Shown here: piece after piece, positions 14,128-64,000 of the stretch
Position numbering within the stretch: position 1 is the stretch's first letter
How the letters are laid out: every line of letters begins with the position of its first letter
Assembly (NCBI GenBank): GCA_001600635.1
Contig: BCKL01000008.1
Location: forward strand, 321,830 to 385,829
DNA: 64,000 nt
Reading direction: 5' to 3'
DNA from: Leucosporidium creatinivorum
Taxonomy: Eukaryota; Basidiomycota; Microbotryomycetes; Leucosporidiales; Leucosporidiaceae
The notes under the pieces: model-generated
Seen by the model: only the letters and a program-made list of their open reading frames with translations
What the model was told of the DNA's origin: nothing
The model's database searches: none
Program-made: the position numbers and the translations under genes

Positions 14128-14323
14128 GTACACCTCGAAGTGTTTCCTGACCTTGCAGTCGGTTTCTGTCGTGTCTCGTTTCGCGCATTTCGTGTCGCCT
14201 CTCTTTCTCCTCCGCTTCACTTCGTTCTCGCTTCGACACTGTTGGACAGCTGGACAGAAGGAAGCTCTACAGCGACTAGCACCCTCCACAACCTACAGCA
14301 CCCTCCCTCGAAGCTCTACCAGG
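14128..14323 (+). repeat. F-box-family upstream block, copy at locus A
   Basis: About 200 nt shared with the regions directly upstream of B, C, D and E. Common landmarks are GTTTCCTGACCTTG, CACTTCGTTCTCGCTTCG, ACAGCTGGACAGAAGGAAGC and TCGAAGCTCTACCAGG, the last just before the start-codon position. It has the same orientation relative to each gene, so it behaves as promoter/leader copied with the genes. Confidence 0.75.
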
Positions 14324-15551
14324 GTGGACAACCTGCTCGAAGCTCAGTCCCCTTGTCCCGCTCAGCCCGTCGAAGCTCCCCGCCAGCTGACCCTCGCTCC
14401 CCACCGAGATCCTGCAGCGTATCATCCAACTCGCTCTCCCCCGACTCTCCTTCAAGACCTTTCGAGAGCGCTACGACATCCTCCTCACCTGCTGTCGCGT
14501 CAACAAGCTCTGGGCGGCGTTGGCGCAGAAGGAACTCTTTCGCCATGTCTGGTGTAGAACAGAGGCCTCCAAAGACAAGTTCGGTCGCTCGAGGATGCAG
14601 GAGGAGCTCAGCACGCAATCACTCTGGCTTCGGGAGGGGGCCGCCGTCTCCACACACAATCGAGTCTTCGCGGCTTGTGGGACGTTGAAGATGCTGTCCA
14701 TGACAGCTTTCCACCAAGAGATCCACCTGAGCGTTCCCGCACTGCTGCAGGTCTCAAGAGGCGAGTCACCCTCTTTTTCGGCGAATCGGCTGAGGCTGAC
14801 CAGCGTGCTTGCAGACCTCGAGGTGCTCGCTCTGGACTTCTTGCTTCTCGAATCGGCGCTCGAGACCAATCCTAGTACTTTCCCTGCCCCCCGTCGCCTC
14901 TCGCTCTCGTGCTTTGCGCGCTCGACGGACACGGCGACCTTTCTTCGCGCAGCAACCCTCCCTCTCCTCGAAGCGCTGGATATCACCTGCAGCAGTGGCC
15001 ACTCACAGGGGAACCTGGATGAGCTGTCCGGGTGCATCGTCGCTCTCGCCCCTCAATTGCTCTCATTCTCTTTCTCGGCCCACTGCCTTCCCTCTTCGAC
15101 GGTCCTCTCGCCCGAAACCTGGCCGGCCATGTCGAAGCTCCAGCACCTCACACTTCACCACAATGCCGACCTAAAGAAGCCACTGTCCTCCATCTCGTCC
15201 CCACTTATCACCCTCCGCCTTCGTGGACCTGTGCCGGAGGACGACGACGATCTCCCATTCGACATTTCGGCGCTCGCCAAGATCATCAGCGTGCCCCCTG
15301 GCTGTCTCAAGACCCTTAGGCAACTCGTCCTCCCTCGCACAACTCCTCCCACTCTCGCTGGGGACGACGACGACCCGGAAGAGATCGAGCAGCAGCTTGC
15401 TACCGAGGTCGTGATTGCTCGTTGCCGCGATCTGGGCATTGCCATTTCGCATTGGCCAGAAGTGGAGCACGTCACCTTCATGGAGTACATCGAAGATGAG
15501 CTGAGCTTTACGTTAGTCTCTACCGTGCCGCTGCCCGCCCGAGCTCGCTGA
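14324..15551 (+). pseudogene. F-box-like/LRR paralogue A, probably damaged at its 5' end
   Basis: Closest to copy E at 46 kb. The position of the family start codon reads GTG (14324) instead of ATG. Near 14383 there is one extra base compared with E, so the first 20 residues (to APRQL) and the F-box-like segment (LQRIIQLALPRLSFK) are in different frames. Downstream, the frame is intact over about 380 residues: F-box-like remainder (RERYDILLTCCRVNKLWAAL), then leucine-rich repeats to TGA 15551. The family intron is kept (14761-14814, GC donor GCGAGT), joining 14760 to 14815. It may be a relic or make a shortened protein; a sequencing error at one site cannot be excluded. Confidence 0.6.
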
Positions 15552-15793
15552 CCTTCCTCGCGCTCGCAGATGAGAAGAAAGCTCGAAGGGTGGCAACGAT
15601 AGGTCGACGAAGAATGCCGCTAGCTCGTTGTTGGCTGTGGAGTCCTTGCTGTACGTCTGTTCTCGATCCCAGCTGAGAGCTTCGAGCCAAGAACCAAGAA
15701 CCAGGCGAGCCGTCTCGGCGTTCTCTCCAGCTCTCAGCGAAGGAAAACGAAGCCTGAACAAACAGAGACTGCTATGGCGCTATCAAATACCTA

Positions 15794-18581: not shown

Positions 18582-19787
18582 TCAGCAGCGGGCTCGCCAG
18601 CAGCTCAAAGCATCCTCAAGATGGCCCACTGTGTCGTTGAAGGCGATGTGCGGCCGCAGAACGACTTTGACGTCGCGCTCTTCGGACCAGCGCATGACTT
18701 CCTCACGCTCATCCGCCAAGTCGTCCACGGCCAGCAGCTCGATCCTCGCCTTATCGATCTCTTCAAGAGGTATAGTCATCTCCTTGAGCAAGAGTAGGCA
18801 AGGCGGTCGACGCTTCAGCGCGTCGAGGAAAGGGCGGAGGGCGAGCTGGGGGTGGGCGAAAGCTGGCCCAAGGCGGAAGGTTTCGAGAGAGGTGGTGATG
18901 AGAGGTAGGATCTCGCTGAGAGGAGCATCGGAGTCCAACACGAGGTGCTTGAGCGAGGTCAAAGCCGGCCAAAGGTCGTGAGGGAGCTCAGTCCAAAGGA
19001 TCGTCGGGGCGGCGAAAGCCAAAGAGTTGAGATTGGGCAGGCAATGACGAAGGCTTGTCAGCATGGCTCCGAGTGTCGATTGAGCACCTCCTTGATCGTC
19101 TAGAGAGAGTGTGAGGTGTTGTAGCAGAGGCAGTTCGGATCCCGAGAAGAAGTCGGCGACGGCTTCGGCGCTATTGTGCTTGAGAAAGGACAAGGCAAGG
19201 TGACGAAGCCGAGGGAAAAGGAGTGGGTCGCGACGGTTCATCTTGACGCTGCAGCCACCGAGAACGAGCACTTCGAGGTCTGCCAGTGGGTCGGGGCAGT
19301 CAGCTGTCGTCGTCGCCGAAACGAATCGAGAGGCTGACGACTGACCTGGAGCGATCCCGCTGAGCAGGCTCGGTCGAATGTATCCGGTACTACCCCTCCC
19401 GGCGAAGTACAGCGCGCTCAGTCCTCGGCAAACTCGCGCGGTCGTGATGCGCGAGGTCGGCGCTCCCAGCATCCAAAGCGAGCGGGTCCGAGGGTCCTTG
19501 GCGGAGGATGCAGCTCGAGCACGAATCAGCCCTAGTGAATGAGATGCAGGTTGTCCGAGCTGGACATGGCTCCATAGCTCGACTTGAGCTACAGCTGCCC
19601 AGGCTTTGTTGACGCGACAGAGCTCCAACAGGGCGGCGTTGCGCTCTCCAAAAGTGGTGAAGCTCAGAAGGGGAAGGGCCAGGTGGATTATACGCTGCAG
19701 GATCTCGGTGGGGAGCGAGGGGAGCTGACGGCGAGCTTCGTCGGGCTGAGCGGCAGGAGGGGCTTGAGCTTCGAGCGGGTCGTCCAT
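18582..19787 (-). CDS. F-box-like/LRR protein, paralogue B (subfamily 1)
   Basis: Exons 19346-19787 and 18582-19279 give 379 residues. The N-terminal F-box-like motif is LPTEILQRIIHLALP followed by LLELCRVNKAWAAVAQVELW. The rest is irregular leucine-rich repeats (LEVLVLGGCSV, LPLLQHLTLSLDDQ, LTSLKHLVLDSDAP). By family analogy it could be an SCF ubiquitin-ligase substrate adaptor binding Skp1; this is inference. The intron 19280-19345 is frame-neutral, at the same place as in A and E but with a GT donor. The ATG at 19787 is preceded by the shared upstream block. It is the mirror partner of E at 46 kb. Confidence 0.8.
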   Translation of the reverse strand: MDDPLEAQAPPAAQPDEARRQLPSLPTEILQRIIHLALPLLSFTTFGERNAALLELCRVNKAWAAVAQVELWSHVQLGQPASHSLGLIRARAASSAKDPRTRSLWMLGAPTSRITTARVCRGLSALYFAGRGSTGYIRPSLLSGIAPGQSSASRFVSATTTADCPDPLADLEVLVLGGCSVKMNRRDPLLFPRLRHLALSFLKHNSAEAVADFFSGSELPLLQHLTLSLDDQGGAQSTLGAMLTSLRHCLPNLNSLAFAAPTILWTELPHDLWPALTSLKHLVLDSDAPLSEILPLITTSLETFRLGPAFAHPQLALRPFLDALKRRPPCLLLLKEMTIPLEEIDKARIELLAVDDLADEREEVMRWSEERDVKVVLRPHIAFNDTVGHLEDALSCWRARC

Positions 19788-20010
19788 CCTGGTAGAGCTT
19801 CGAAGAGGATTGCTGTAGCTTGTGGAGGGTGGTGGTCGTAGTAGAGCTTCCTTCTGTCCAGCTGTACGAGAGCCGAAGCGAGAACGAGGTGAAGCGGAGG
19901 TGAAAGAGAGGCGAGAGAACGGCGAGAGGCGAAATAACGGCCGCTGTCTCCCAAGGTCAGGAAACAGATTGAGGTGCAGAAATTGGCAAGCGGGGTGATG
20001 GAGAGCCAAG
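19788..20010 (-). repeat. F-box-family upstream block, copy at gene B
   Basis: Same block as at 14128-14323, on the minus strand directly upstream of B, with GTTTCCTGACCTTGGGAGAC at the distal end and TCGAAGCTCTACCAGG next to the ATG. Confidence 0.75.
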
Positions 20011-20014
20011 CATA

Positions 20015-22217
20015 GGCTACATGATACCTCAACTGCACTCTACAGCTTTTCCAGCTCCGCTTGGCCGTTCGCCAGACCTACAAACCGAGGCGAACAGCCA
20101 TCGCCGAGCGCTCGTTCAAGGAATCAAATCTGCCCCGTCACTCGGCTCTCTGGTCCAAATCGGCGTCCAGAGGGAGTCTTACTTATCTCGCTCCTCAACA
20201 CAAGCGAAACTGCCCATCTCAGGCTACTCTAGTCTCTAGTCTCCCGCCTCTCGCTCGGCGCCCTCCTCAGCAGCTCGACCGCGCCGAGACAAAGCGAGTA
20301 TTGCACATCCAAGAAAGCTCGCATCAGCAGTAACACATTCGATCATTGAGCACCTTCCTCTCAAGGTGCCTTCGCGACTCTGGAGAGGCTCAAGAAGTCA
20401 GCTCAGCGCAGAGCAGCGAGCTCCTCAAACGAGCGAAAGACTCACCAAACCTTCTTCGCATCTCCCAGAGAGGTCAGTGAGGAGTTGGATTCGAAGGCCT
20501 TCGTCTCCAGCAGCTTGATAGTTCTCTCCTTGCACAATGTGCGTAGTGAGGCTCGCTCGGCAAGCTCGGCGAGCGATTCTGGTGCGACGCCGCAGCTCGA
20601 GGGGTCTGTAGTGCAGGAAGGGTCGGAAGGTATGTCGAGCGTTCCGAGCTTGGCGAGAGAGGGGTGAGCCTCGTTGAAGAGGTTGAGAAGAGGCTGGACA
20701 GAGCCCAGTCTCGTGGCGTCGGAACGGAGGCGAAGGTATTGCAGGGGCGAGGAGAGGTGGCGAAGGATTTGGTGGCGATCAAAATCGATAACGAGGCGTT
20801 CGAGGTTTTGGAAGCAGTCCCAGAAGGTGGTGGGAAGCTCGTCGAGCAGGTCGCGGTCGTCGTCGACGTCGGGAAGGGAGACCGAAAGGAAGAGAGCACG
20901 GAGATGTGGGGCGAGCGCTGCCATGTGCTCTTGTAAGCGGCCGACTTGATAGGTCATGTTGATAGCCCCGCCTTCACGCACGACGACGGTGAGGCTCTCG
21001 AGGTGAGGGAAACGTCGTGGGTCGAGGATGCCGAGTTCGGATAGTAGAGAGTAACGGAGGATGAGGCGTCGCAAAGNAGTGAACTCGACGGCGGCGGATT
21101 GCGAGATTCGGACGTGGTCCATTGTGAGCTCGACCAGTCCTGTAGGGAGCGCATAGCATCAGTGGGAGCTGTGAGGCCGTTCAGCAACGATAGACTTACC
21201 CTTAGCGACGCTGTCGAGTGCATAGCAGGGGCTCAAGGGACCGGCAGCAGTCCTAGACACGATACTGATAGTCTTCATCCCCGTGCAGGCTTCGAAGAGG
21301 AGGGAGAGTCGCGAGTTCGACCAAGCGATCGCCATGCCGCTGCTCGCCTGCTCCGTGTCGATCCACAGCGACTGAGGGGTCGTCCAAGCGCCTGTCGCAG
21401 CTTCGATGCTCTGCTGCGCGTCCATGTACACGCCCGCATCGCGCGCCGTGCGAATCCAGGCGTGGGCGAAGAGCTCCTGCTGTCCGAGCGCGCGCCACAT
21501 GCGAGAGACTCGACAGAACTGCAGGAGGACAGCGTAGCGCTCCTTGTAGCAGGCGAAGGTATGAGGAGGTAGAGCAAGTCGAATGATGCGCTGGACGAGC
21601 TCGGTCGGGAGGGTTGGGAGGGTCTGAGTCGAGGGACGAGCGGTGGGCATGTTGTGTGAGCTTCGAGGGGAGTGCTGTAGCTTGTTGACGGTGCTGGTCG
21701 TCCGAGAGCTTCGTCCTGTCCAGCTGTACGAGAGTCGAAGCGAGTACGAGGTGAAGCGGAGGAGAAAGAGAGGTGAAAGGGCGTCGAGAGGCGAAATAAC
21801 GGCGGCTGTCTCCCAGGGTCAGGAAACACTTTGAGGTGCACTTTGATCGACTGCAAGGAGCTTCAGAGGCTTTACAACCGATACCGTGTCCACCTTGACG
21901 GGCTACAGCCGCTTGCGAGCTTTCTGACCTCTCCCCTCGGCGCTCGGCAGGTCCTTCCAGTTGCGAAGTCGAACGCCAGAGCCGTGAGCTCATCCCTCAG
22001 GTTGTGGAGTGACTTCAGGCGCTGGAGGAAGCTCAAACTTCTTCAGAAGATACGTGGCGGATCTTGAAGTCGACAGCGAGCCGCTACGATGCTCCAATTC
22101 GCTCGAGCTGCCATCGCCGAGACCAGCTCTCAAGGCTCGAGCAGAGCGCTGGCTCGTTCTGAGGCGCCGTTGAGCGTCTCGGAGGGATCTCATATGTATC
22201 ATACCGGACTCTACTGA
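20015..22217. repeat. inverted-duplication arm 1 (gene C and flanks)
   Basis: About 2.2 kb that reappears in reverse orientation at 42541-45805. Similarity covers the 3' flank (20015-20441), gene C, its upstream block and 5' flank to about 22217. Net arm length matches arm 2 once the 1061-base internal duplication there is removed. Coding identity looks high, with scattered differences in both exons. Confidence 0.85.
20442..21650 (-). CDS. F-box-like/LRR protein, paralogue C (subfamily 1)
   Basis: Exons 21200-21650 and 20442-21139 give 382 residues. The F-box-like segment is LPTELVQRIIRLALP followed by LLQFCRVSRMWRALGQQELF. The C-terminal two thirds are leucine-rich repeats (FPHLESLTVVV, LQYLRLRSDATRLGS). 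The intron 21140-21199 lies one phase-1 glycine codon after SVAK. One ambiguous base (N at 21077) falls in exon 2, at the same codon as the N in D2. Possible SCF adaptor role is by family analogy. Nearly identical to D2 in the opposite orientation. Confidence 0.8.
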
Positions 22218-22545
22218 CCCTCGACTGCCTCCCATGTTTAAGGAAGGGTGAGAAGAGCCGTGCAAGACCCCTCCGAGTCGCCGCCGAAGCGGGCTCGGCG
22301 ATGGCCTGCCTTGCTGCTGGAGAGGTTTGAGAGCCCAAACAGGCGTGTAGGAGCTACATGAGAGCTACCACTCTACCTTGACAACGCTACAACTCTCCAC
22401 CTGCCCCCCTAACCCGACCTCTCCCCTCCCCTTGTCCGCCTCTTCTCAAGCTTGCCCTTCTCCCGCTCACTGCTCCTCCACTCGTTCTCGCTTCGACTCG
22501 CTCTCGCTGGACAGGATCAAGCTGCTAAGCAGAGGACGACTGAAA
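22075..22545 (+). repeat. direct repeat R1 (also 37.2 kb; partial inverted copy at 42.55 kb)
   Basis: About 470 nt running from AGCGAGCCGCTACGATGCTC to about CTAAGCAGAGGACGACTG. It is nearly identical to 37211-37685 in the same orientation. Its first 140 nt also occur reversed at 42541-42690. No coding or transposase content is seen. Here it lies about 0.5 kb upstream of F-box gene J, so it could be a copied promoter segment. Confidence 0.75.
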
Positions 22546-23087
22546 GCCCATCTGCACCCTCACCTACACCTACACCACAGCCCTTGCGTCCACCCCTCGT
22601 CGCTCGCTCAGCTCATCGCCCGCTCGAACGCGCGCTCTTGGACCAATTGAGGACGCTGGAGCTGCTTTCGTGAGATCGTCGCTGCTGTAGGGTGAGTACT
22701 AGAGATCTGGAGATGTGTAGGAGACCTCGACGGTGCTGCAGTAGACTGGGAGAGGCGCTGAGAGGGAGGAGCTGCCGGGCGAGGGAGGAGAAGGGGGCCG
22801 CTGGACGAGACAAAGGCGCAAAGCGGCAGAAGGTGGAGGGAGATTTGAGAGTGTAGCTTGGAAGAGAGAGAGCTACAGACACTCTCGTACAAGGAGAGCA
22901 ATCCGCTGACCTTTCTTTCGCACGTCGCAGACCGTCTCGGCGATCGCTTTTCACCTCCAAGCTCGACCTGGCTGCTTCCAGCGTCGACCGCATCAGCATC
23001 AAGTACGCGAATCCACCGTTTTCCTCATCTTTAAGCAAAGCCAACCTGTGATGACCTCCACAGCTTCTCCCACGCTCTCTCCTCGCC
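22546..23087. other. leader region of F-box gene J
   Basis: No coding exon identified. A possible 5'-UTR intron runs from GTACGC at about 23002 to CCACAG at about 23062, just before the ATG at 23088. Confidence 0.4.
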
Positions 23088-24344
23088 ATGCCCGAGCTGC
23101 CTTCAGAAACCCTCCTCCACATCTTCTCCGATCTGGGCGAGCACGACGATCCACCAGCTGTCTACACCCTCTCCAATCTCTGCCTGGTATCCAAATCATT
23201 CCTCAAGCCCGCCCGAGACGTCCTCTACCGCCGACTCTACCTCTCCTTCCACCTCGCCAAAGTCGCCTCCGCCAATGGGAGCGCATTGGCGCCGTTTCCC
23301 CCTTCACTCTGCGCCGTAGAGATAGATGGGGTGCGCTGGGAGCTTCGAGTGCGCTTCGCATCCATCATCCACACCCTCGCCTCGTCCCCCGCGTTCGCTG
23401 CCCGAGTGCAATCCGTCTCTTTAGGATTCGTGTCTGAGTCCAGGAAAGGCCGCCGTCCCGATTATGCGCACTTCGGGATTCTCGTAGGGCCTCAGACACT
23501 CAGCGCGGCGATTGAACGCCTCCTCGGATCGTTCTGGCAGCGGATCCAGCCAGGCGTGCACGTCCACTTGAATTCGACTCCAAGCTGGGCGGTACAAGGC
23601 CTCCTCGACAGCCTACAGGATCGACCCGGAATGTTGAAGAGCATGAGCATGGGTGTGCGGCGAGCACGTCGTTACCACGCCATCGAGGTCGACTCCCTCG
23701 TGCAGTTGCTCGGCGACGCACCCCCGCTCCGAGCCTTGGAGTTCTATGACCGACGCTCGGAACGCTCGGACTGGCCTACGACTCCACAGCTGAGCTCTCT
23801 ACGCCATCTCAAGGTCCGATAAGCCTCCCTCCCCACCTTCCGCGCCCTCACCGCCCGCTCCTCCGCCAACCTCACTCGGCTCGACCTCGTCCTCGCCACG
23901 ACTAAACCACTCGACCTGTCGACCTTCTCCAGCCTCAAGCATGCTCAGCTGAAACTCCTCCCCACCAGTCATTGGTGGAGCCACCAATGTCCTTCCATCT
24001 CGTGGATCGCCCCAGAGCCGAGCTTCATCACTTCCCTCCACCTCGGCCCAATCAACATGTCTTCCCCTCTCCCTTCCATCCCACTCTCAGTTCAACACCT
24101 TACTCTGGCTCCCATCATTCCAGCCACTAAGGCTCACAATCCCACCTCTCGCTCATCATCCCTTTTGGCGCTCGGCCGAGCAGTTCGCTCCGCCTCTGCC
24201 CTTCGGACGCTGCACCTCCAGTGGGACGGCAGCAAGAGCGACTACTCGTCGTTGTTACTTCGGCGACAGCTCGAACTCGTGGAAGAGGCGGAGGGTAGTG
24301 GTGTACAGGTCTTGATGAGCTGGCTCGTCAAGGAGGAGCAATGA
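23088..24344 (+). pseudogene. F-box/LRR gene J interrupted by one in-frame stop
   Basis: An F-box protein distinct from subfamilies 1 and 2. It starts MPELPSETLLHIFSDLGEH and continues with LSNLCLVSKSFLKPARDVLY, a more canonical F-box. The reading frame runs 23088-24344 (418 codons) except for a single TAA at 23820-23822 in CGA-TAA-GCC. Leucine-rich repeats continue in the same frame on both sides (LSSLRHLKVR before; LTRLDLVLATT and VQHLTLAPIIP after). I could not find an intron that removes the stop and keeps frame. It may be a recent pseudogene, a truncated 244-residue F-box protein, a read-through case or a sequence error. Confidence 0.65.
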
Positions 24345-29457: not shown

Positions 29458-31339
29458 ATGCTCGTCAGGTCGCTCACCAAGCACACTCGACTACTCACAC
29501 TTTCAAACGCTCGCCTCTCTTCTACCTACACCTCACCACTCTTCTGCAGCGCTACAGCAGCCTCCCATTCCAGCGTCATCTCTGCCCCACTCCCGCTCAC
29601 CAGGTCTTCCTCTTCGACGACCTCCTGCACCTCAGCAGCCCGTTTCCTGCACAACAGCAACTCGTCTCGCAACATGTCCACCTCGCAGGGAAAGCAGGCT
29701 CAGTCCGAGATCACCTCGTGGGCCTCCAAGGATGGCAGCTTCAAGCGTCTCCCCTCCGTCTTCCGCAACCACATCGAAGTAGGAGGACAGCACCCTCCCG
29801 AGAAGGGGCGTTACACCCTTTATGTATCCTACGCCTGCCCCTGTGAGTATGATGTAGTGCAGAACCTCTCGAGAGCCGGCTCGGACGAAGCAAGCTGACG
29901 CACTCGGCGCCCTCCTCCTCCCCGTTCGCTATTCTCCTACGTTTCTGTAGGGGCTCATCGTGCTCTGATTGTGCGCCAGTTGAAGGGTCTAGAGGCTTGG
30001 ATCGATCTCTCAGTGGTCCATCCGTTCATGGGGGCGAAAGGTTGGTCATTCTACCCTCCCATTCGCGGCGAGGACGGATCGTACCCTGCCACCGAGGGTG
30101 AGACTGGACCCGACGATGGCATTGAGGGTGTGATCCCCGATCCCCTGTACAACGCCAAGTTCATCCGCGAGCTCTACTTCAAGGCCAACCCCGAGTACGA
30201 GGGAAGGTGAGTTTCGGCCGAGCCTAACTCGAGATCGAGCTGCTGCTGTAACAAGCTCGTTCGGTACAGGTTCACTGTTCCCGTGCTCTGGGACAACAAG
30301 CTGGAGACCATCGTCAACAACGAGAGCTCGGAGATCATTCGCATGCTCAACTCGGAGGTGAGCTTGCTCGCCGTTCCCCGTTCGCTGCACTTTCGCTAAC
30401 TTCTGCAATCCTACAGTTCAACTCGGAGCTGGAGAGCAAGTTTGCCGAGATCGACTTGTATCCCGAGTCCCTTAGGTCCGAGATCGACGCTCAGAACGAA
30501 TGGGTCTATGACACGGTCAGCTCGGTGGACTTCCCCGTCTCCAAGCTGTTGCTCACTCTGTTCCGACTCCAGGTCAACAACGGCGTGTACAAATCCGGAT
30601 TTGCGACCACTCAGAAGGCGTACGAGACCGCCGTCGTCCCCCTCTTCGAGTCGCTCGACAAGCTTGAGAAGCTCCTCGACGGCGACAAGGAGTTCATCGT
30701 CGGCTCGCAGCTCACCGAGGGCGATGTTAGGCTCTTCACCACCATCGTATGTTTCCTTGCATAGACCTGTCTGCCTCCTGCTGACCTCCGCCCTCCCACA
30801 GATCCGCTTCGACCCGTTCGTCGTTTCTCGGCGTCGCTATTCTCTTGCGCTGAGCTGACTTCTTGCGACCTCCTATCGCAGAGTCTACGTCGGACACTTC
30901 AAGACCAACCTCGGAACGTGAGTCGAGCCCGCGTGACTTCTACCAATCGCAGCAGCTCATCTCCGTCCCGTTTCGCAGGATCCGCCACAACTACCCCAAC
31001 TTGAACCGCTGGGTGAGCCTTCAACGCACCTCATCTCCCTGTTCCAGATTACTGACGTGGTCTCGTTCCCTACAGCTCCGCAACCTCTACTGGAACTACC
31101 CCTCGTTCAAGGACACGACCAACTTTGAGCACATCAAGGTCCGCCGAGCTCTCGTTCTGCTCCTCTCCATCACCATGCTGACACTCGACTCTCTCGCAGG
31201 CTCACTACTACATGTCGCACCCTCAAATCAACCCGACTCGCATCGTCGTACGTCTCCTTCCTGTCCGAGTGCGCCGAACGTCTCGCTGACCTTGACCTTG
31301 CAGCCCGTCGGCCCTCTCCCTGCTATCGAGCCCCTCTGA
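29458..31339 (+). CDS. ECM4: glutathionyl-hydroquinone reductase (ECM4-type, Xi-class GST)
   Basis: Eleven exons (29458-29842, 29951-30206, 30270-30357, 30417-30515, 30573-30746, 30802-30815, 30882-30917, 30979-31012, 31076-31138, 31200-31247, 31304-31339) give 410 residues. The enzyme reduces glutathionyl-hydroquinones using the active-site cysteine: C127-P128-W129-A in [19 protein letters not shown], where the Trp codon is completed by the first splice. Other family segments are [38 protein letters not shown] and [10 protein letters not shown] Ser/Thr-rich extension of about 70 residues precedes the second methionine ([12 protein letters not shown]) and may target mitochondria. Intron 30516-30572 is frame-neutral and is removed here because [14 protein letters not shown] matches the family. 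Confidence 0.9.
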
Positions 31340-37004: not shown

Positions 37005-37210
37005 CTCAAGGAGTCACTGTAAAGCTCACATACGCAATGAAGAGATGCTCAACATCCGGCCGCGAGACCCTCCCCTCCTTTCGGCGCTCGAGAGCCCTTG
37101 CCGAAGCCGAGCTCCGAAGCTGTATGCTCACTCGCCGGCTTGTTGAGTGACTCGAGGCGCTGCAGGCATCACGGAATTCAGAACGCGCAGATCTGACGGA
37201 CTCTGGCGCC

Positions 37211-37685
37211 GATAGCGAGCCGCTACGATGCTCCAATTCGCTCGAGCTGCCATCGCCGAGACCAGCTCTCAAGGCTCGAGCAGAGCGCTGGCTCGTTCTG
37301 AGGCGCCGTTGAGCGTCTCGGAGGGATCTCATATGTCTCATACCGGACTCTACTGACCCTCGACTGCCTCCCATGTATAGGGGAGGGTGAGAAGAGCCGT
37401 GCAAGACCCCTCCGAGTCGCCGAAGCGGGCTCGGCGATGGCCTGCCTTGCTGCTGGAGAGGTTTGAGAGCCCAAACAGGCGTGTAGGAGCTACATGAGAG
37501 CTACCACTCTACCTTGACAACGCTACAACTCTCCACCTGCCCCCCTAACCCGACCTCTCCCCTCCCCTTGTCCGCCTCTTCTCAAGCTTGTCCTCCTCCC
37601 GCTCACTACTCCTCGACTCGTTCTCGCTTCGACTCGCTTTCGCAGGAGAGCATCACAGCTGCTAAGCAAAGGAGGACTACTGGAA
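37211..37685 (+). repeat. direct repeat R2 (copy of R1)
   Basis: Nearly identical to 22075-22545, same orientation, with a 3-nt difference near GTCGCCGAAGCGGG. A weaker extension to about 37120 resembles the flank of arm 1. No F-box gene follows here, so this is an orphan copy of a segment that elsewhere lies near F-box genes. Confidence 0.75.
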
Positions 37686-43685: not shown

Positions 43686-43785
43686 NNNNNNNNNNNNNNN
43701 NNNNNNNNNNNNNNNNNNNNNNNNNNNNNNNNNNNNNNNNNNNNNNNNNNNNNNNNNNNNNNNNNNNNNNNNNNNNNNNNNNNNN
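43686..43785. other. assembly gap (100 N)
   Basis: Exactly 100 N, the conventional length for a gap of unknown size. It begins at the base equivalent to the single N at 44747 in D2. Confidence 0.97.
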
Positions 43786-44173: not shown

Positions 44174-45382
44174 ATGCCAGCCGCTCCTCCCTCCACGCTC
44201 AGCAAAACAACCCTCCCGACCGAGCTTGTTCAGCGCATCATCCGGCTCGCTCTACCTCCTCCTACCTTCACTCGCTACAAAGAGCGCTACGCCATCCTCC
44301 TGCAGCTCTGTCGAGTCTCCCGCATGTGGCGCGCGCTCGGACAGCAGGAGCTCTTCGCCCACGCCTGGATTCGCACGGCGCGCGATGCGGGTGTGTTCAT
44401 GGAGGCGCAGGAGAGGATAGAGACCGCGACGGGCGCTTGGACGACCCCTCAATCGCTGTGGATCGACGCGCGAGAGGCGAGCAGCGGCATGGCGATCGCT
44501 TGGTCGAACTCGCGACTCTCCCTCCTCTTCGAAGCCTGCACGGGGATGAAGACTATCAGTATCGTGTCTAGGACTGCTGCCGGTCCCTTGAGCCCCTGCT
44601 ATGCACTCGACAGCGTCGCTAAGGGTAAGTCTATCGTTGCTGAACGGCCTCACAGCTCCCACTGATGCTATGCGCTCCCTACAGGACTGGTCGAGCTCAC
44701 AATGGACCACGTCCGAATCTCGCAATCCGCCGCCGTCGAGTTCACTNCTTTGCGACGCCTCATCCTCCGTTACTCTCTACTATCCGAACTCGGCATCCTC
44801 GACCCACGACGTTTCCCTCACCTCGAGAGCCTCACCGTCGTCGTGCGTGAAGGCGGAGCTGTCAACATAAGCCATCAAGTCGGCCGCTTACAAGAGCACA
44901 TGGCAGCGCTCGCCCCACAACTCCGTGCGCTCTGCCTATGGGTCTACCTTCCCGACGTCGACGACGACCGCGACCTGCTCGACGAGCTTCCCACCACCTT
45001 CTGGGAATGCTTCCAAAACCTCGACCGCCTCGTAATCGATTTTGATCGCCACCAAATCCTTCGCCACCTCTCCTCGCCCCTGCAATACCTTCGCCTCCGT
45101 TCCGGCGCCACGAGACTGGGCTCTGTCCAGCCTCTCATCGACCTCTTCAACGAGGCTCACCCCTCTCTCGCCAAGCTCGGAACGCTCGACATACCTTCCG
45201 ACCCTTCCTGCACTACAGACCCCTCGAGCTGCGGCGTCGCACCAGAATCGCTCGCCGAGCTTGCCGAGCGAGCCTCACTACGCACATTGTGCAAGGAGAG
45301 AACTATCAAGCTGCTGGAGACGAAGGCCTTCGAATCCAACTCCTCACTGACCTCTCTGGGAGATGCGAAGAAGGTTTGGTGA
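44174..45382 (+). CDS. F-box-like/LRR protein, paralogue D2 (subfamily 1)
   Basis: Exons 44174-44624 and 44685-45382 give 382 residues, the same architecture as C. The F-box-like segment is LPTELVQRIIRLALPPPTF with LLQLCRVSRMWRALGQQELF; leucine-rich repeats follow. Compared with C, exon 2 differs at scattered codons (for example INMTYQ against VNISHQ). One N at 44747 sits early in exon 2. The upstream block of the family lies at 43980-44173. It may act as an SCF substrate adaptor (inference). Confidence 0.8.
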
Positions 45383-45839: not shown

Positions 45840-46035
45840 CTGCACCTCAATCTGTTTCCTGACCTTGGACGACAGCGGGCGACATGCCTCTCTGGACTCT
45901 TTCACCTCTCTTTCTCCTCGACTTCACCTCGTTCTCGCTTCGTCTCTCGTACAGCTGGACAGGTCGAAGCTCAGGACAACTAGCACCGCTCAGCAACCTA
46001 CAGCAACCCCCCTCGAAGCTTGCTGCTTTACCGGG
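45840..46035 (+). repeat. F-box-family upstream block, copy at gene E
   Basis: Shares GCACCTCAATCTGTTTCCTG, CTTCACCTCGTTCTCGCTTC and GTACAGCTGGACAGG with the other blocks, but is more diverged in the middle (ACATGCCTCTCTGGACTC). Confidence 0.7.
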
Positions 46036-47248
46036 ATGGACAACTCAGTCCAAGCTCAGTCCCCTCCTCCCGCCCAGCTCGACGTCGAAGCTCCCCGCCA
46101 GCTCCCCTCGCTCCCCATCGAAATCCTGCAGCGTATCATCCAACTCGCCCTCCCCCGACTCTCCTTCAAGACGTTCCGAGAGCGCTACGACATCCTTCTC
46201 AACTGCTGTCGCGTCAACAAACTCTGGGCGGCGCTGGCGCAACGAGAGCTCTACAGACATGTCTGGCTTAACCACGAGGTCGCAGGAGATGCTTTCCTCC
46301 GAAGCCACAGTGCACCGCTCGCCGAGAGGATGGAGTCGCTCCGTCTGAACGAGGAGCACAAATCGCCCGGCGTCAAGACCGCCGCGATGAACAGCCTCGT
46401 GGACATGCTGCCGGGTCCGAGGGAGTTGCACCTCATCACGAAACCTGGGGGGTCCGGCGACTTCCTCGTCCTCGATCTGGGTGCACTGTCGAAGCGCTGT
46501 CGAGGCGAGTCCCGCCGAGCTAGGTTCGGCGCAGCGGACTGATCCGTCGCACCCTACAGAACTCGAAGTCTTGGTGATGGACTACTGCAAATTCGACCCG
46601 GATCCAGCTCACGCCGCCTTGCAGCTCCCAGCATTGCGCCATCTTGCCCTCTCCTACCTGTACATCGCTTCCGACTTCGCTTCGATCTTAGCCAAGGCCG
46701 ACCTGCCTCAATTGGAGTCGCTGGTCCTGGTGCTTGGAAATCAGGTCTTGCGAGACGAAATGGGGACTCTCACGGCCGCCCTTGCACGCCATGCGCCTCG
46801 CCTCAAGGTCTTCACGCTCTCCTTCATCGACGACGAAGACCAGTACCCGTTATCTGACAGCTTCTGGTCCTCCCTCACCGCCCTCGAAGCTCTCACACTC
46901 GACCACAGCTACGACATTCGCTCGGTCCTCCCCCATCTTACGCCGACGCTCCGCCGCCTGCAGATTCGACCTCCCTTCCTCCGATCTGACTCCCCTCTCA
47001 CCTTCGAGTACTTGAGCAAGGCTCTCAAGGTCTCCGCGCCATGCCTCCAGTTCGTCAAAGAAATCATCCTACCTCCGGCCGAGCTATCCCCGCAGGAAAG
47101 CCCGAACGGATCACCTTCGGCGACGATTTGCGAGGGGAGGATTGAGCTTGAGACGATCTGTCTACAGCTCGGCTTGGAGGTGATCACGGTGCCTAGTTTC
47201 CGTAACGAGGATTTCATGGATCACTTGGAGAATGCCTTGACGTTCTAG
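46036..47248 (+). CDS. F-box-like/LRR protein, paralogue E (subfamily 1)
   Basis: Exons 46036-46504 and 46560-47248 give 385 residues. The F-box-like segment is LPIEILQRIIQLALPRLSF with LLNCCRVNKLWAALAQREL. Leucine-rich repeats follow (LEVLVMDYCKF, LPALRHLALSYLY, LPQLESLVLVLGNQ). The intron 46505-46559 has a GC donor (GCGAGT), the same as in A. It is the mirror partner of B and the closest relative of damaged A. Confidence 0.8.
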
Positions 47249-52749: not shown

Positions 52750-53024
52750 CCTGAGGCGAGAGGCGAAGTCGAAGAGAATCGAGAGAAGAGGGGGGAAGTC
52801 AAGAGGCGCGTCGAGCTGCTCCCTCTGACTTACCCTCCGACTACTTCCTGCTCGTTTCTCGTTCACCCAACAGCTTTCGAAGGACTGTATCCGTCCATGT
52901 AGCTTACTGCTCGCCCGACGACTGCGGTGCAGGGTCCGCGCTGTGTTCGCTCCTCGTTGCCCTTCGCCGACGCTTTCGCTCTTGCTCTCTCGCTTCTCAC
53001 TCGACTTGCACCTACTTGAACAAC

Positions 53025-54502
53025 ATGCTGGGACTCCTCCGTGCTCGCATGTCCGGTAGAGCTACCCCTGGAGCACAGTGAGTCTCTCACCTCCCCTTCC
53101 CGCTCCGTCCTCGCTAATTCCCCTCCGAGCAGACCAACCCAGAAGCTCAACGAAAGGGCCCTCAAACTACCACTCGAGATCATCGAGTACACACTGCACC
53201 TCGCTGCACCCTCGGTCAGCCACGACCCCGCCTCGGTCGACCTGCGCACCACCTTCCTCCTCCGAATCGGCCTCACCTCCCGTTTCCTGCACGAATGGGC
53301 GGAGGAACGTCTGCTGGAGGAGATGATCGTCGCTGAACGAGTTCAAGGAATGCGACGCTTGGCCAATTGGATCAAGAGGCGGCCGGAGAGGGCGCCGAGG
53401 ATCCAGCAACTCGGCTTGCTGCTGGAAGAGACGGAGGAGATGGCGATGAGGAAGCCTCAGCAGCAGAAGGCGCTCAATGCCCTGTTCGCGCTTTGTACCG
53501 AGCTTCGAGTCCTTCGACTGCAGGGATCTCAGTGGAGGACATTTGTCGGTGTCGAGCCGTTTGCTGAGCTGCAGCGTGAGTTCAACCCTTCCGTCTCACC
53601 GCACATCGCTGATCTCCCGACAAGCAGACCTGCAGACGTTGCACCTCATCAACATCGTGATCGAGCCACGCTCCCGCGCTCGCTCCCTCCACTTCGCCTG
53701 GCCGCCGATTCGGACCCAGGAAGCGCCTTCTCCTCCCCTCGCCGTCACCTCGCTCAGACTGTCCAACTCGGTCTTTTCCCCCGCTCAATCCCTGCCGCAC
53801 CTGACGCATCTCGCTATCGATCAGTCCATCATCTCACCCGCGTTCTCCGTCCTCCGCTTCGCTTCCAACCTTCGCTTCCTCAACCTCGGCGCAGGCGGCA
53901 CGGACGGAGAACCTCAAGACTACGCCGAGCTCCCGCAGCGCACTTCTCTCTTCTCCCTCGGTGTCCCCTTCGCCAAGATCAGCCACCCAAGCCTTACACA
54001 AATCCCTGCCTCCGTTCGCCATCTCCGATTCCACTCGACTCGCCTCCTCCGCCTCCACCACTTCAACGCAGGCTTCGCTATCCTCTCACAAGCTCTGGAC
54101 GGGCAGTCGGATACAGCGCCGACATTGAGTCCTGAGTTTGAGCTTGGGGAGACGAGAAGGAGGCTGCGGCGAAGGTCGAGTGCTCTCGGAGCCGAGGGAG
54201 GCTTGCCTTCCTGCCTCTCCCTGCTGGGTCTCTTTTCTATCTTGTTTCTCTTCTCCCATATACGTGGTCACTACTCGAGCTCTGACACCCTCTATATCTC
54301 TGCTCGACCGCATCAGCTCTCCTCAATCAGCCAAGCGGCCGCCTCCCTCGTCTCTCCCGCTCGCCATCAGCTCACTCGCATCGCTCAACATGCTCAGTCT
54401 CTGGCGCCCGAGCCTTCTCCGACTCAACACGCGGGTACTCTCCTCGCCATCTACTGCGTGGGAGACGCCTTCCTCGCCTGCCAACGCCACCTCTCCGACT
54501 GA
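53025..54502 (+). CDS. F-box-like/LRR protein, paralogue F (subfamily 2), 3' end replaced
   Basis: Exons 53025-53077, 53133-53575 and 53628-54502 give 456 residues. The F-box-like segment is LKLPLEIIEYTLHLAAP with FLLRIGLTSRFLHEWAEERL; leucine-rich repeats follow (LQTLHLINIVIEP, LPHLTHLAIDQSII). From about 54150 the frame enters sequence homologous to the upstream region of H and overlaps the first 113 nt of G. The usual subfamily C-terminus (VERVREL type) is missing. It looks as if a tandem-duplication breakpoint removed the normal end; the last 110 residues are therefore doubtful as protein. Divergent from the SANTA gene, 275 nt away. Confidence 0.6.
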
Positions 54503-55744
54503 AGCCGTCGCCGAACCCCTTCGCCTCCCGCTCGAGCTGATCGAAATCATCCTCACTCATATTATCGAGCTTCTACTATACGACGACCTTTCTGGCGAGT
54601 CTAAGGTGTTCGGCTTTTGCCTTCGAGTCGGTCGAATCTGCCGCGATCTCAACGTGTGGGCTGAGCAACGGATCACTCGCTCGCTCGAGGGCAAGAGCCT
54701 CGCTCAGATCGAGGACATCGTAGGGAGATTCAAGAAATACACTATCAACTCGGCCGCCAAGATCAAGGTGCTTGACATCACGCTCGAGGTTGCAAAGGGG
54801 GAGAGCGCCGCGTCTCCGAGGCAGGTCCAGCAGGAGAAGGCGTTGGGCGACCTGCTGGGGTTTTGTACCGGAGTCAAGACACTCCGGTTCTTCACCAACA
54901 TGTCGGCTCCAAACCCNGTCGTTCGGTTTGAGCTGNTCAGCACGCTGTCAAGTGAGTNATTCGCCCGCTCGGCGATGGCGCAGCCTTCTCNTGNCCTCAG
55001 TAACCCCCNNATGCTGCAGATCTGGAGACGCTCGAGCTGAANGAAGTCANNCTCAANATCTCTCGCAAGACTTCAAGATTCAAGCTGCACCTCATCGTAC
55101 CCTTCACGCGCCGTCGACCGCTCCCTTCCCTCTCCGCCCCCTCGATCCGCTGTCTTCGCTTCTACCGCACCACCTACTCCGAAGGCCTGCCTCCGCCTAC
55201 GTCCGACACGATTTTCTTGCCCTCACTCTTCCCCTCGGCCACCCTCCTCACTCTCACCTACTACCCCTTCACGCTTCACACTCGTTGTGGTCCCTTCCCC
55301 ACCCTCGGCTTTCCCTCCTGGACCTCCCTCCAAGCTCTCGATATCGCCTACGAGGACGTCTCACGTCAAGCCCTACTTGCCAACTTTCCACCCCAAACCC
55401 GCTTCGTCAGGCTCGGTCTCCGCCCGCGCTACAGGCAATGGGTCTCCAGCTTCGATTTGGAGAGGAGCATTGAGCCGCTTCGGCGCGCTCTGGAGGAAGA
55501 TGCGCCTGCGTTCAGGAAGCTGGAGGCTGTTTACATCGAGGTGAATGAGAATCATGCCCTGTCCGATGGAATTAGGGGAAGCAGTCTGAAGGAGTGGGAG
55601 CGGTTCGGCCGAGTCGCGCTGGAGAAGGGCGTCGAGGTACTGCTGGAGAAGGACGACAAGGTGGTAGAGGTGGGGGACGATAAGAGAACGACGAGTGTTG
55701 TGGTGGGAAAGCAGAGCTTCGCAGAGCGTTTGCAGGAGTTGTAG
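54390..55744 (+). CDS. F-box-like/LRR protein, paralogue G (subfamily 2)
   Basis: Exons 54390-54951 and 55020-55744 give 428 residues. F-box-like part: LRLPLELIEIILTHIIELLL, then FGFCLRVGRICRDLNVWAEQ. Leucine-rich repeats and the subfamily C-terminus (SFAERLQEL) follow. Eleven ambiguous bases lie between 54917 and 55057, around the intron and the start of exon 2, so several residues there are unknown. The intron (54952-55019) is at the same place as in H and I. Confidence 0.75.
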
Positions 55745-56106
55745 CTCGGTAGAAGAGACACTATGGAAACTTGGCGCTCGGCGTTCATCTCCTCGTCGTC
55801 TCGAGCCACCGCGAGCAGGCAAGCGAGCAGCATACGAAAGGCGGTAGAGTTGCGCCATAATCAGAGCGGTGGGAGCACCAGCAGGGAGGCTGAACCGGGC
55901 CAAGATGGAGCGCTCTGGGAGCCGAGAGAGGCTTGCCTTCCTGCCTCTCGCTCGCCGCTAATTTTTCGCTCCCTCGACTCTTCTCATAGCCTTTCTTGCA
56001 TCACATTTGTGTCTACNTCGGTGTAGACAGTNACGNCCACCCTCAGCAGACCCCTCCACTNNNTCTNNCGCGCTNGCCAGCCTNCTTCNCTCGNCCCTNG
56101 CTCGCN
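55745..56106. other. intergenic between G and H, with ambiguous bases
   Basis: Contains a segment (55915-55960) shared with 54180-54225 upstream of G (GAGGCTTGCCTTCCTGCCTC). It is followed by 14 ambiguous bases between 56017 and 56106, just before the H start codon. Confidence 0.6.
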
Positions 56107-57467
56107 ATGACCAAGCTCCGCCGACGCCGCGCCGCGCAGCTCGACAAACAAACGGATCCCTCTCAATCCGTACCGACATCGTCGAGTCTTGCTCGCAGCC
56201 TTCGATCTGCTCCTTCAAGCGAGGCTGCTGTCGCCGACCCACCACTTCGCCTTCCTCTCGAGCTCATCGAGGCTATACTCGCGCAAGCCGTCGAGATCTT
56301 GAGCCTGGAGTCTTCAGATGGCCCAACAGCGTTCCAATTCTGCCTTCGAGTGGGAGAGACATGCCGTCACTTCAACGCCTGGGCGGAGCAGCGGATGACT
56401 CGCTCGCTGAAGATTGGTGGCTTGGATCAGCTGGAGGACTCGGTGAGGAGGCTACAGGATGGACTCAAGCACTTCAGTCAGAAGCTCGCCAGGCTGGAGG
56501 TGATCTTGACGGTCAATTGTGACGACAAGGATGGGAGGGCGAAACGGAAAAGGCAGGTGAAGGCGCTGGAGCAGCTGTTGGGACTATGTAGTCAAGTCAG
56601 GATACTGAAGTTGGGAGGTTGGACGGGTACCCGACCACCTGTGATCTCGTTGGAGCTGATCATGAGGCTTCCGAGTGAGTGGCTCGGTCTCGGTGCTCGG
56701 CGATGGCTCTCGTGCGGCGCTGATCGGTTCTGGTTGCAGACTTACACACTCTATGCTTCAGTCACGTCAAACTTGACGTCTTCACCAGCACCAGACGCTG
56801 GTCACTGCACCTCAGCCCGCCCTTCATCCAACTTCGCACGCCGCCTCCCCTCGCCTCCCCCTGCCTCCGCTCCGTCCGCTTCCATGACACAACCTTCGTT
56901 AACGTGCGCCTCCGCCAGCCCGCGCCCGACGTCCACTTCTCCTTTCTCTTCCCCTCCGCAACTCTTCTCACTCTCACGCACAATCCCTTCGACTACACCC
57001 CTCTCGACTCGTTCGGCGGCGCCTCCTGGTCCTCTCTCCTGGCCCTCGCCATCTCCCCCGACTTCCTAGGTCGCCACGGCCGAGAAATATTTCACAGCAA
57101 TAGCTTCCCACCAAGCCTTCGACTCGTCAAGCTCGCTCTATGCTCGGAGTATGGAGGAGAGGGAACTGACGAGAGTTTCGCCGTCACGCTCGATGACTTT
57201 GCCCGAGCTTTCGAGGGAGACGGGTCGACGCTAAGCCACCTAGAAGCCATCTTTCTCGAGCTCCATGAGGATCATATCTTGGTGAACATGAACCAGCTCT
57301 GGCGCGAGGATGAGCCGTGGGAGCGCTTTCAGAAGGCGGCGCAGGCGAGAGGAGTGGAAGTGGTGCCCGAGGAGGATGGTCAGGTGGTGGACATTGGTGA
57401 GGATGGGCATACGAGGAGTGTAGTCGAAGGGAAGAAGACCTTTGTAGAGCGGGTGAGGGAGTTGTAA
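56107..57467 (+). CDS. F-box-like/LRR protein, paralogue H (subfamily 2)
   Basis: Exons 56107-56674 and 56740-57467 give 431 residues. F-box-like part: LRLPLELIEAILAQAVEILS with FQFCLRVGETCRHFNAWAEQ. Leucine-rich repeats include ATLLTLTHNPFD and LRLVKLALCSEY; the C-terminal block EDEPWERFQKAAQARGVEVV ends in FVERVREL. It is very close to the partial copy I at the window edge, in opposite orientation. An SCF adaptor role is by analogy only. Confidence 0.8.
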
Positions 57468-62561: not shown

Positions 62562-62771
62562 GCAAGAAGGAGGAATGGGGGAGAAGAGGAAGAGGGAGGA
62601 GCGAGTGGTATAGATACCGACGAGGCGAGGAGCGCCACGCACACGACGACGACGACGCATCTTGCTGAAAGGGACTTCATATTCTTTTTGTGATCAGTTC
62701 TCGGTGTCGCGGGCGAGGGAGAGGAAGAGGGAGAGCTGAGAGTGAGCGCCGAGCTGAGAGTCGTCGTTACA

Positions 62772-64000
62772 TTACAGCTCCCTCGCTCGCTCTACAAAGC
62801 TCTTCACCCCTTTGACTACACACCTCGTATGCCCATCCTCATCAATGTGCACCACCTGACCATCCTCCTCGAGCACCACTTCCACACCTCTCGCCTGCGC
62901 CGCCGTCTGTAAGCGCTCCCACGGCTCATCCTCACGCAGGAGGCGGTACATGTTCACCAGCAGATGATCCTCGTGGAGTTCTATAAAGATGGCTTCCAGG
63001 TGGCCTAGGGTCGATCCGTCTCCCTCGAAAGCTCGGGCAAAGTCATCGAGCGTGTCGGCGAAATCGCTTAGGACCGCTTCGCGCCCATGCTCCGGGCATT
63101 GAGCGAGCTTGAGGAGTCGAAGTTGAGGGGGAAAGCCATCGAACATCCCTCGGCATCTGTGGCGTATAAAGCTGGGGGAGACCGCGAGAGCGAGAAGAGA
63201 GGACCAGGAGGCGAGGTCGGAGGACTCGGGCCCGGGGGCGAGAGGGCGGTGGTCGAAAGGACGGTGGGTGAGGGTGAGGAGAGTTGCGGAGGGGAAGAGC
63301 TTCGGGAAGCTGACTTTGGGCTCGATTTGCTGGAGTCGGACGTTGATGAAGGCGGTGCGATGAAAGCGGATGGAGCGGATGGAGGAGGAGGAGAGAGAAG
63401 GCGGCGTGCGGTGTTGGATGAAGGGGGGGCTGAGGTGCAGTGACCAGCGTCTGGTGCTGCTGAAGGTATCAAGCTTGACGTGGCTGAGGTATAAGGTGCG
63501 AAGGTCTGCGATGGGGTATCGTCAGCTGCCCGCGAAAGGAATCGCCGAGCGCCGAGCCCACTTGAACTCACGGGGAAGCCTCAGAATCCGCTCGAGCGAG
63601 ACGACAGGCGGTCGGGTGGACTCCAAACCCCACAGACCCAGCACTCTGACTCCAGCACATAGCCCCAACAACTGCTCGAGCGCCTTCCCCTGCCTCTTCC
63701 GCTTCGCCCTCCCGTCCTCCTCGTCACAATGCACCTTCAACACGACCTTCAGCTCAGTGAACTTCTGACCAAAGTGAGGCCCCAGTTCCTTCAACTTCTT
63801 CACCGTATCCTCCAGCTGCTTCAAGTTGTTAATCTCGAGCCAGCGAGTCAAGCGCTGCTCGGCCCAGGCGTGGAGGTGTCGGCACGTCTCTCCCACTCGA
63901 AAGCAGAATTGGAACGCTGTTGGGCGATCTGACGATCCAGGCTCAAGATCTCGACGGCTTGCGCGAGTATAGCCTCGATGAGCTCGAGAGGAAGGCGAAG
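62772..64000 (-). pseudogene. F-box-like/LRR paralogue I (subfamily 2), runs off the window, probable frameshift
   Basis: Exon 2 is 62772-63505; exon 1 begins at 63572 and continues past the window end. The product is close to H: ETCRHLHAWAEQRLTRWLEI, leucine-rich repeats, EDEPWERLQTAAQARGVEVV and the end FVERAREL. Between LPLELIEAILAQAVEILSL and CRHLHAW the sequence has one base fewer than H (about 63935), so the F-box-like start and the rest are in different frames. It may be a relic or use another start. The 5' end lies outside the window. Confidence 0.6.

What the first reader, a model, noticed from the sequence alone, without database searches (positions are those of the whole stretch)
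14128..64000. Local swarm of F-box-like/LRR genes in two subfamilies
Eleven loci (A, B, C, J, D1, D2, E, F, G, H, I) in 50 kb share an N-terminal LPxE(I/L)(L/V)QRII-type or LPLELIExIL-type segment followed by irregular leucine repeats. Subfamily 1 (A-E) and subfamily 2 (F-I) each have one intron at a fixed place. Several members look broken. This is birth-and-death evolution of probable SCF adaptors, possibly a fast-evolving recognition repertoire.
Basis: partly seen in the sequence, partly recalled or inferred. Interest (0 to 1): 0.7.

Follow-up and report, generated by a model that had tools for sequence, protein, structure and literature searches.

The report
Fungal F-box genes swapping recognition bodies
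A fungal chromosome carries about 25 related genes for probable protein-destruction adaptors whose front end stays nearly constant while the back half, thought to recognise targets, has been exchanged between copies, which would be a way to build a changing recognition repertoire.

Summary
Subfamily 1 (A-E) consists of F-box plus leucine-rich-repeat (LRR) genes. D1 is an assembly overlap: 961 bases repeated exactly across a 100-N gap. A, F and I are broken; B, C, D, E and H have open spliced frames, and so has G apart from N. Subfamily 2 (F-I) has six loci, in one inverted repeat. It has no Pfam F-box hit, but its profile matches subfamily 1 and its intron sits at the same place.

Subfamily 1 belongs to 26 loci along 560 kb of this contig, in a genome with at least 128 F-box matches and one Skp1 locus. 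The new result: 24 of these 26 loci share all or part of a ~400-base 5' cassette (noncoding DNA, ATG, F-box), while upstream DNA and LRR bodies are mostly unrelated. Of 11 young duplicate pairs on several contigs, 9 share only the body or only the upstream DNA. Cassette and body trees reject each other. LRR bodies have therefore been exchanged at DNA level, at or near the cassette.

Best reading: SCF (ubiquitin-ligase) adaptors forming a recombining recognition repertoire. Skp1 binding and the recognition role are inferred, not shown.

The parts
14195..15551 (+). Locus A: 5' cassette (about 14195-14536) plus F-box/LRR reading frame (14388-15551); broken 5' end (start codon lost, frame break before the F-box)
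18582..19787 (-). Locus B: F-box/LRR gene, exon 1 19787-19346, intron 19345-19280 (phase 1; frame stays open if retained), exon 2 19279-18582
   Evidence: exon 2 structure
19594..19984 (-). 5' cassette of B (noncoding plus start of F-box), 74-85% identical to cassettes of other fetched C8 members
20442..21650 (-). Locus C: F-box/LRR gene, exon 1 21650-21200, intron 21199-21140, exon 2 21139-20442
   Evidence: cassette differs from D far more than flanks and body do
23055..23822 (+).
   Evidence: 36.2 bits; 33.2 bits
42725..43685 (+). 'D1': exact repeat of 43786-44746 across a 100-N gap; assembly overlap, not a second gene
44174..45382 (+).
46036..47248 (+). Locus E: exon 1 46036-46480, intron 46481-46559 (weak donor, model less sure), exon 2 46560-47248
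45850..46240 (+). 5' cassette of E (noncoding plus ATG plus F-box), used as genome query: 27 matches, 26 on C8
43786..46232 (+). D-E block, inverted duplicate of the C-B block (19597-22036) at 90.5%; the match ends inside the F-box, after which the bodies of B and E are at background identity
53158..54139 (+). Locus F (subfamily 2): F-box-like exon 1 53158-53580, second exon from about 53624; C-terminus lost against the mirror copy F'
54513..55741 (+). Locus G (subfamily 2), with scattered N; 100% identical to its mirror copy over 54800-55700 (N left out)
56107..57464 (+). Locus H (subfamily 2): exon 1 56107-56674, exon 2 about 56740-57464
62775..63935 (-). Locus I (subfamily 2), mirror partner of H; frame break after its first ~70 codons, most of which lie beyond the window end
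52829..57467 (.). Left arm of an inverted repeat F-G-H; the right arm is 62772-64000 and continues about 3.7 kb beyond the window (C8:385830-389564)
37210..37678 (.). Copy (96%) of the DNA upstream of C (22071-22541); no F-box gene seen beside it, probably a relic of a duplication

Best explanation
This is a family of F-box/LRR proteins, most likely substrate adaptors of SCF ubiquitin ligases, whose repertoire is renewed by duplication, decay and DNA-level exchange of gene bodies. The typical gene has a conserved 5' cassette of about 400 bases (some 200 noncoding, the start codon and the F-box) followed by a one-intron LRR body. Ectopic recombination or gene conversion with an end in or near the cassette puts one member's LRR body behind another member's upstream DNA and F-box. 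Shown: the sequence architecture, a predicted LRR fold for one body, the mosaic histories and the tree conflict. Inferred: Skp1 binding, recruitment of targets for ubiquitination, promoter activity of the cassette, and selection for a diverse recognition repertoire.
Confidence: 0.72

Rival explanations
1. Ordinary birth-and-death of F-box genes: cassette and F-box are conserved by purifying selection, LRR bodies simply evolve fast, and no exchange is needed.
For: The Neochlamydia F-box/LRR families were explained by birth-and-death, and that paper says the same of eukaryotic F-box families (PMC4209131, passages); broken members are present; two young pairs here are plain duplications.
Against: Cannot explain six young pairs whose bodies are 88-99% identical while the noncoding cassette is 72-82%, the F-box 74-91% and the upstream DNA at background, nor three pairs with 89-99% upstream and unrelated bodies; tree conflict; synonymous sites show the same reversal in the two youngest pairs tested.
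Confidence: 0.15
2. Assembly artefact: repeats were mis-joined, giving false mosaics.
For: D1/D2 is such an artefact; C38 and C9 share a 100% identical stretch at the C38 end; mirrored N in 218808/239063 and in the subfamily-2 arms.
Against: Mosaic pairs such as 243597/309805 and 248792/280828 differ at many sites along the shared tract, with no N in those genes; the pattern recurs on other contigs with different cassettes.
Confidence: 0.08
3. The proteins keep the F-box fold but work outside SCF, or are decaying gene-family noise without a common function.
For: Near-threshold F-box scores in several members; of 27 C8 loci given to the gene-model script (D1 included), 18 gave long models, 3 short ones (153124, 280828, 500838) and 6 none.
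Against: The F-box part has the lower dN (median 0.24 against 0.98 in the body); the positions of LPxLPxE..QRII..LALP are invariant in 11 of 11 aligned proteins, chosen from the longer models; Skp1 and cullins present.
Confidence: 0.2

Closest known systems
F-box/LRR (FBXL) SCF substrate adaptors such as SKP2, FBXL17, TIR1 and yeast Dia2
   Same: N-terminal F-box and C-terminal LRR solenoid; the predicted body aligns best with these and other LRR folds.
   Different: Well-studied FBXLs are slowly evolving single genes (recalled); here there are dozens of paralogues with a shared 5' cassette and exchanged bodies. Skp1 binding untested.
Neochlamydia NEX1a F-box/LRR family (Domman et al., PMC4209131, passages read)
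   Same: Large family with a conserved N-terminal F-box and LRR bodies; 129 and 158 F-box proteins in the two genomes.
   Different: Bacterial proteins thought to be secreted effectors; the authors found mostly marginal signs of recombination and concluded birth-and-death without homogenisation, whereas exchange is strong here.
Podospora NWD non-self recognition genes (Paoletti et al., PMC1805685, passages read)
   Same: Fungal multigene repertoire whose interaction domain is exchanged between loci by unequal crossing-over or gene conversion.
   Different: NACHT/WD-repeat proteins in which short repeats are homogenised; here whole LRR bodies move and stay very different, while the F-box end is the shared part.
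Pneumocystis msg genes with the UCS/CRJE junction (PMC5676039, passages read)
   Same: A conserved 5' element with the protein start acts as a recombination junction for variable bodies.
   Different: There msg-I genes use one single-copy subtelomeric expression site; here most loci have their own cassette and lie at 152-715 kb of a 1.03-Mb contig. The product here is thought to be intracellular (inferred), not a surface antigen.
Tetrahymena LRR genes shuffled by ectopic recombination (PMC6564038, passages read)
   Same: LRR diversification by ectopic recombination between paralogues.
   Different: Unit is a 90-bp exon array; no F-box cassette was described in the passages seen.

Membership tests
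F-box/LRR (FBXL) proteins, subfamily 1 | F-box domain near the N-terminus | tested here: met
   PF12937 in A, B, E over the cut-off (25.3-27.3 bits); A and B lie just below and E just above it; C and D at 15-16 bits, below it, but C aligned with the rest and D its near copy.
F-box/LRR (FBXL) proteins, subfamily 1 | C-terminal LRR solenoid | tested here: met
F-box/LRR (FBXL) proteins, subfamily 1 | Binding to Skp1 and assembly into SCF | not testable with these tools
   Skp1 and cullin genes exist in the genome; no binding data.
F-box proteins, subfamily 2 (F-I) | F-box domain | tested here: inconclusive
   No Pfam match at E<=1; hhalign to subfamily 1 probability 95%, E=3.7e-8 with the LPLELIE segment on the F-box; same intron place; exon-1 structure model only pLDDT 53.
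Birth-and-death multigene family | Duplicates of different age plus broken members in one genome | tested here: met
Birth-and-death multigene family | Species-specific gain and loss against relatives | not testable with these tools
   The genome has no relatives in the searchable set (note).
Msg-like cassette switching with a single expression site | One expression site; donors without promoter; subtelomeric location | tested here: not met
   Cassette DNA, full or partial, at 24 of 26 C8 loci, spread over 152-715 kb of a 1.03-Mb contig; where the contig lies on its chromosome is unknown.
Concerted or exchanging recognition repertoire | Exchange of the variable domain between loci | tested here: met
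Concerted or exchanging recognition repertoire | Diversifying selection at contact residues | tested here: inconclusive
   Only bulk pairwise dN/dS was computed; medians below 1, body near saturation.

The most novel reading that the evidence does not exclude
A fungus uses its ubiquitin-ligase adaptors as a somatic or population-level recognition repertoire. Individual chromosomes keep private clans of F-box genes, each clan with its own promoter/F-box cassette, and a recombination process targeted to that cassette keeps re-pairing it with new LRR bodies: a degradation-based counterpart of NLR or antigen-receptor diversification.
Probability: 0.15. Interest if true: 0.9.

Novelty: new variant of a known kind. 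Interest (0 to 1): 0.62.

Why it matters
F-box families are a standard case of birth-and-death evolution. Here one genome shows whole LRR bodies moving between conserved F-box cassettes, on several contigs with different cassettes. That gives a simple mechanism for making new ubiquitin-ligase specificities quickly, and a testable candidate for an intracellular recognition system in fungi that is not based on NLRs. The family is large for a small basidiomycete-like genome: printed PF00646 counts are 3-18 in nine tabled Pucciniomycotina, smut and Malassezia species, but 43 in the Agaricomycetes column (PMC4469406, table passage), and 11-17 F-box proteins in S. cerevisiae, S. pombe, U. maydis and P. 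graminis (PMC7991009, passages); here there are 32 PF00646 and at least 128 PF12937 matches. These are six-frame domain matches, not gene counts, so the comparison is rough, and by PF00646 alone this genome does not exceed Agaricomycetes.

Tried and rejected
Subfamily-2 exon-1 structure: confidence too low (pLDDT 53); its best matches, such as RNA polymerase and designed helical bundles, are not informative, and no F-box row was listed, which shows nothing. PDB sequence search with the subfamily-2 profile gave no F-box protein, only hits at E 0.38-0.5. PDB sequence search with the subfamily-1 profile gave mostly LRR proteins: dynein light chain at E=6e-5, FBXL2 at 0.0018, FBXL17 and FBXL3 at 0.3-0.5. 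Foldseek on the B exon-2 model had no match at E<=0.001; NLRP9 was the second row and Rad7 and FBXL17 lay lower. A cassette as a mobile element: 24 of the 26 C8 matches sit at loci of the family; a 61-bp piece at C8:638425 and an upstream copy at 37210-37678 do not; no element ends were sought, so this is only disfavoured. Retrocopying is rejected because shared bodies keep the intron. An RIP-like mutation bias was glanced at in one block pair: transitions 107 of 220 differences. Three alignments of exon pieces meant for a full-length model were judged misplaced (A3 and A5 by inspection, A6 by its summary) and dropped; the exon-2 alignment A7 was used instead. Literature: nine searches; none of the listings showed, by title or abstract start, a paper on body exchange behind an F-box cassette in a fungus. 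This covers only the open-licence library. The species was not identified; 'fungus' rests on the fungal Zn2Cys6 domain in a neighbouring ORF, genome size and short introns. The 42 non-C8 loci of the pair counts were chosen from the hits and are not a random sample; hits on C1, C18, C39 and C27:139766 were not fetched, and L068 was fetched but not analysed. D1 and the C38 end copy of a C9 locus were dropped before the counts. A first count gave 7 body-sharing pairs, because it also asked for upstream identity under 68%; the recount gives 8, adding C9:569457/615450, a plain duplication.

Full report
SETTING. The window is C8:321830-385829 of an unnamed 27.7-Mb genome in 63 contigs. Of 10 neighbouring ORFs scanned, 7 have a Pfam family: fungal Zn2Cys6 cluster, ubiquinol-cytochrome c chaperone, STT3 (two ORFs), thioredoxin, Bud13 and a 2-oxoacid dehydrogenase acyltransferase. 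The F-box genes are thus scattered among ordinary genes.

WHAT IS THERE. Subfamily 1 has the architecture ATG, F-box, intron, LRR body. Of 27 C8 loci given to the model script (D1 included), 21 gave a spliced model: 18 of 359-402 aa and 3 shorter; the intron is phase 1 in 19 of the 21. B, C, D and E are open. A has lost the start codon and has a frame break before the F-box. D1 is an exact 961-base repeat of D2 across 100 N and is an assembly overlap. The block with C and the 5' part of B is an inverted 90.5% copy of the block with D and the 5' part of E.

Subfamily 2 gave 11 matches, all at C8:374987-389236: F, G, H and, in mirror order, I, G', F'. F has lost its C-terminus against F', I has a frame break, and G has scattered N. 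Pfam finds no F-box in the exons scanned at E<=1, but the profile of the subfamily matches that of subfamily 1 from the F-box to near the C-terminus, probability 95%, E=3.7e-8. The intron of both subfamilies lies just before the first LxxL strand of the second exon. I take the two as distant branches of one family.

DOMAINS. PF12937 matches at least 128 places in the genome (150 of 330 candidates scored) and PF00646 32. In the window A, B, J and E match PF12937. Exon 2 of B was predicted as strand-helix repeats, pLDDT 86. Foldseek listed no PDB match at E<=0.001, but realignment of its candidates by VIA-align put LRR proteins on top: RNA1p 11.4, SKP2 11.3, FBXL17 10.7, TIR1 10.5, Dia2 10.0. 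One Skp1 locus with two matching exons and cullin genes on C5, C14 and C20, plus a match below the cut-off on C6, are present.

THE CASSETTE. Aligning C8 loci on the LPSLP codon shows a segment from about -270 to +130 that is 75-90% identical in most windows of the 20 pairs tracked, while DNA beyond it is at background unless the pair is young; 21 loci are shown aligned. The segment of E used as a query finds 27 places: 26 on C8 and one weak match on C27. Without D1 and a 61-bp piece the C8 matches are 24 of the 26 loci; 17 cover at least 300 of 391 bases, 7 are partial (C, D and 153124 mainly in the noncoding part; 500838 and 532985 mainly in the coding part), and 481056 and 562092 have none. 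Over 153 pairs the mean identity was 28% far upstream, 53% near upstream, 70% in the F-box, 30% in the rest of exon 1 and 35% in exon 2, gaps counted as differences.

MOSAICS. 218808 and 239063 share the body at 99% but have different upstream DNA and an 82-88% cassette. 239063 in turn shares upstream DNA (76-82%) with 309805 and 468852, whose bodies are unrelated to its own; 309805 shares its body (91%) with 243597. 500838/532985 and the C11 pair share 97-99% upstream and have unrelated bodies; B/E share 89% upstream and not the body. C/D are almost identical except in the cassette: 53 of 340 against 30 of 1199 differing sites, p=3.6e-17. Among 68 loci and 522 same-contig pairs, 8 share bodies at >=85%; 6 of these 8 have background upstream DNA, and the other two are C/D (upstream shared; its value is disturbed by the gap) and C9:569457/615450, a plain duplication with a 96-99% cassette. 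3 pairs share upstream DNA at >=85% and none of them the body. Four share only the 3' flank among the three outer segments at that level. Three of the 8 body-sharing pairs come from three loci. In 3 of the 4 C8 body-sharing pairs the shared tract ends within about 1250-1450 bases of the anchor, near the 3' end of the gene, so what moved looks like the body itself.

TESTS. The cassette tree and body tree of 17 C8 loci conflict; AU tests reject each on the other's data, p=1.4e-39 and p=1.3e-4 (one row, 280828, has a tail that is probably out of frame). Median dS is 0.63 in the F-box part and 1.84 in the body over 91 pairs of 14 loci, but the order reverses in the two youngest pairs among them. 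Selection on the protein does not readily do this at synonymous and noncoding sites; exchange between loci does. Intron sequence is carried with the body, so the exchange is at DNA level. Subfamily 2 also shows patchwork identity along its arms: 100% over most of G, 97-100% around the start of H, 65-91% in the H/I bodies, though N in this stretch advise caution.

OTHER CONTIGS. blastn among 43 further loci shows the same design with other cassettes in subsets of loci: C10 (about -280 to +150), C27 (-236 to +150), C13 (-245 to +175), C9/C38 (-220 to +245) and a C11 pair. Between other contigs only F-box stretches of about 60 bases match; C9 and C38 share one clan and also an identical stretch at the C38 end. 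Whole-contig medians of noncoding cassette identity are 66% on C8 but 50-54% on C27, C9/C38, C13 and C10, against 51% between contigs and 48% for shuffled sequence, so the clans are subsets.

HOW IT MOST LIKELY WORKS. F-box binds Skp1; the LRR body picks targets for ubiquitination; recombination at the cassette gives upstream DNA and F-box to new bodies. The first two steps follow from the known biology of FBXL proteins and are not shown here. The third is inferred from sequence history; rate and mechanism (crossing-over, break-induced copying or gene conversion) are not resolved. I favour a recognition role (non-self, virus or mobile-element proteins, or allorecognition) at about 40%, because of copy number, body divergence and exchange; bulk dN/dS below 1 does not add support.

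COMPARISON. Works like: Podospora NWD repertoires (exchange of the recognition domain), Pneumocystis msg (junction in a conserved 5' element), Tetrahymena LRR shuffling. Member of: FBXL-type F-box proteins for subfamily 1 by domain content; subfamily 2 only probably. It is not an msg-type system, since most loci have their own cassette and are spread inside the contig. The nearest family in shape, Neochlamydia NEX1a, was reported with mostly marginal signs of recombination.

CHECK OF THIS REPORT. After the first sending I recounted the pairs, corrected 'all members' to 24 of 26, added the Foldseek result and the plain duplications, and softened the comparison of F-box numbers.

Noticed in passing
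window 42725-44746: Scaffold gap of 100 N with identical 961-base sequence on both sides: unmerged contig overlap.
   Followed up: yes
C38:216100-217366 (L040) and C9 around 864668 (L045): The end of contig C38 is 100% identical, in reverse, to C9 sequence about 8 kb from the C9 end, over at least 1267 bases; the two contigs probably overlap.
   Followed up: partly
window 54917-55057 and 56017-56106; L016 139-228 and 1194-1334: Single N at mirrored positions of the two inverted-repeat arms, as if reads could not be assigned between near-identical copies.
   Followed up: partly
window 23055-24344: Another F-box gene with a better F-box score than any member of the two subfamilies; a stop (perhaps in an intron) divides its frame at 23822.
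   Followed up: no
window 30049-30248 and 31770-31968: A 200-base direct repeat at 92.5% identity, away from the F-box genes.
   Followed up: no
C8:638425-638485 (L068): Short piece of the 5' cassette away from the listed family members, perhaps a relic.
   Followed up: no
L027 and L066 (C11): Two F-box genes with about 1 kb of 95.7% identical upstream DNA and F-box, then unrelated bodies.
   Followed up: partly
L047 and L049 (C9:615450 and C9:569457): A young plain duplicate pair of F-box genes with body, cassette and near-upstream DNA all 89-99% identical; shows that exchange is not universal.
   Followed up: partly
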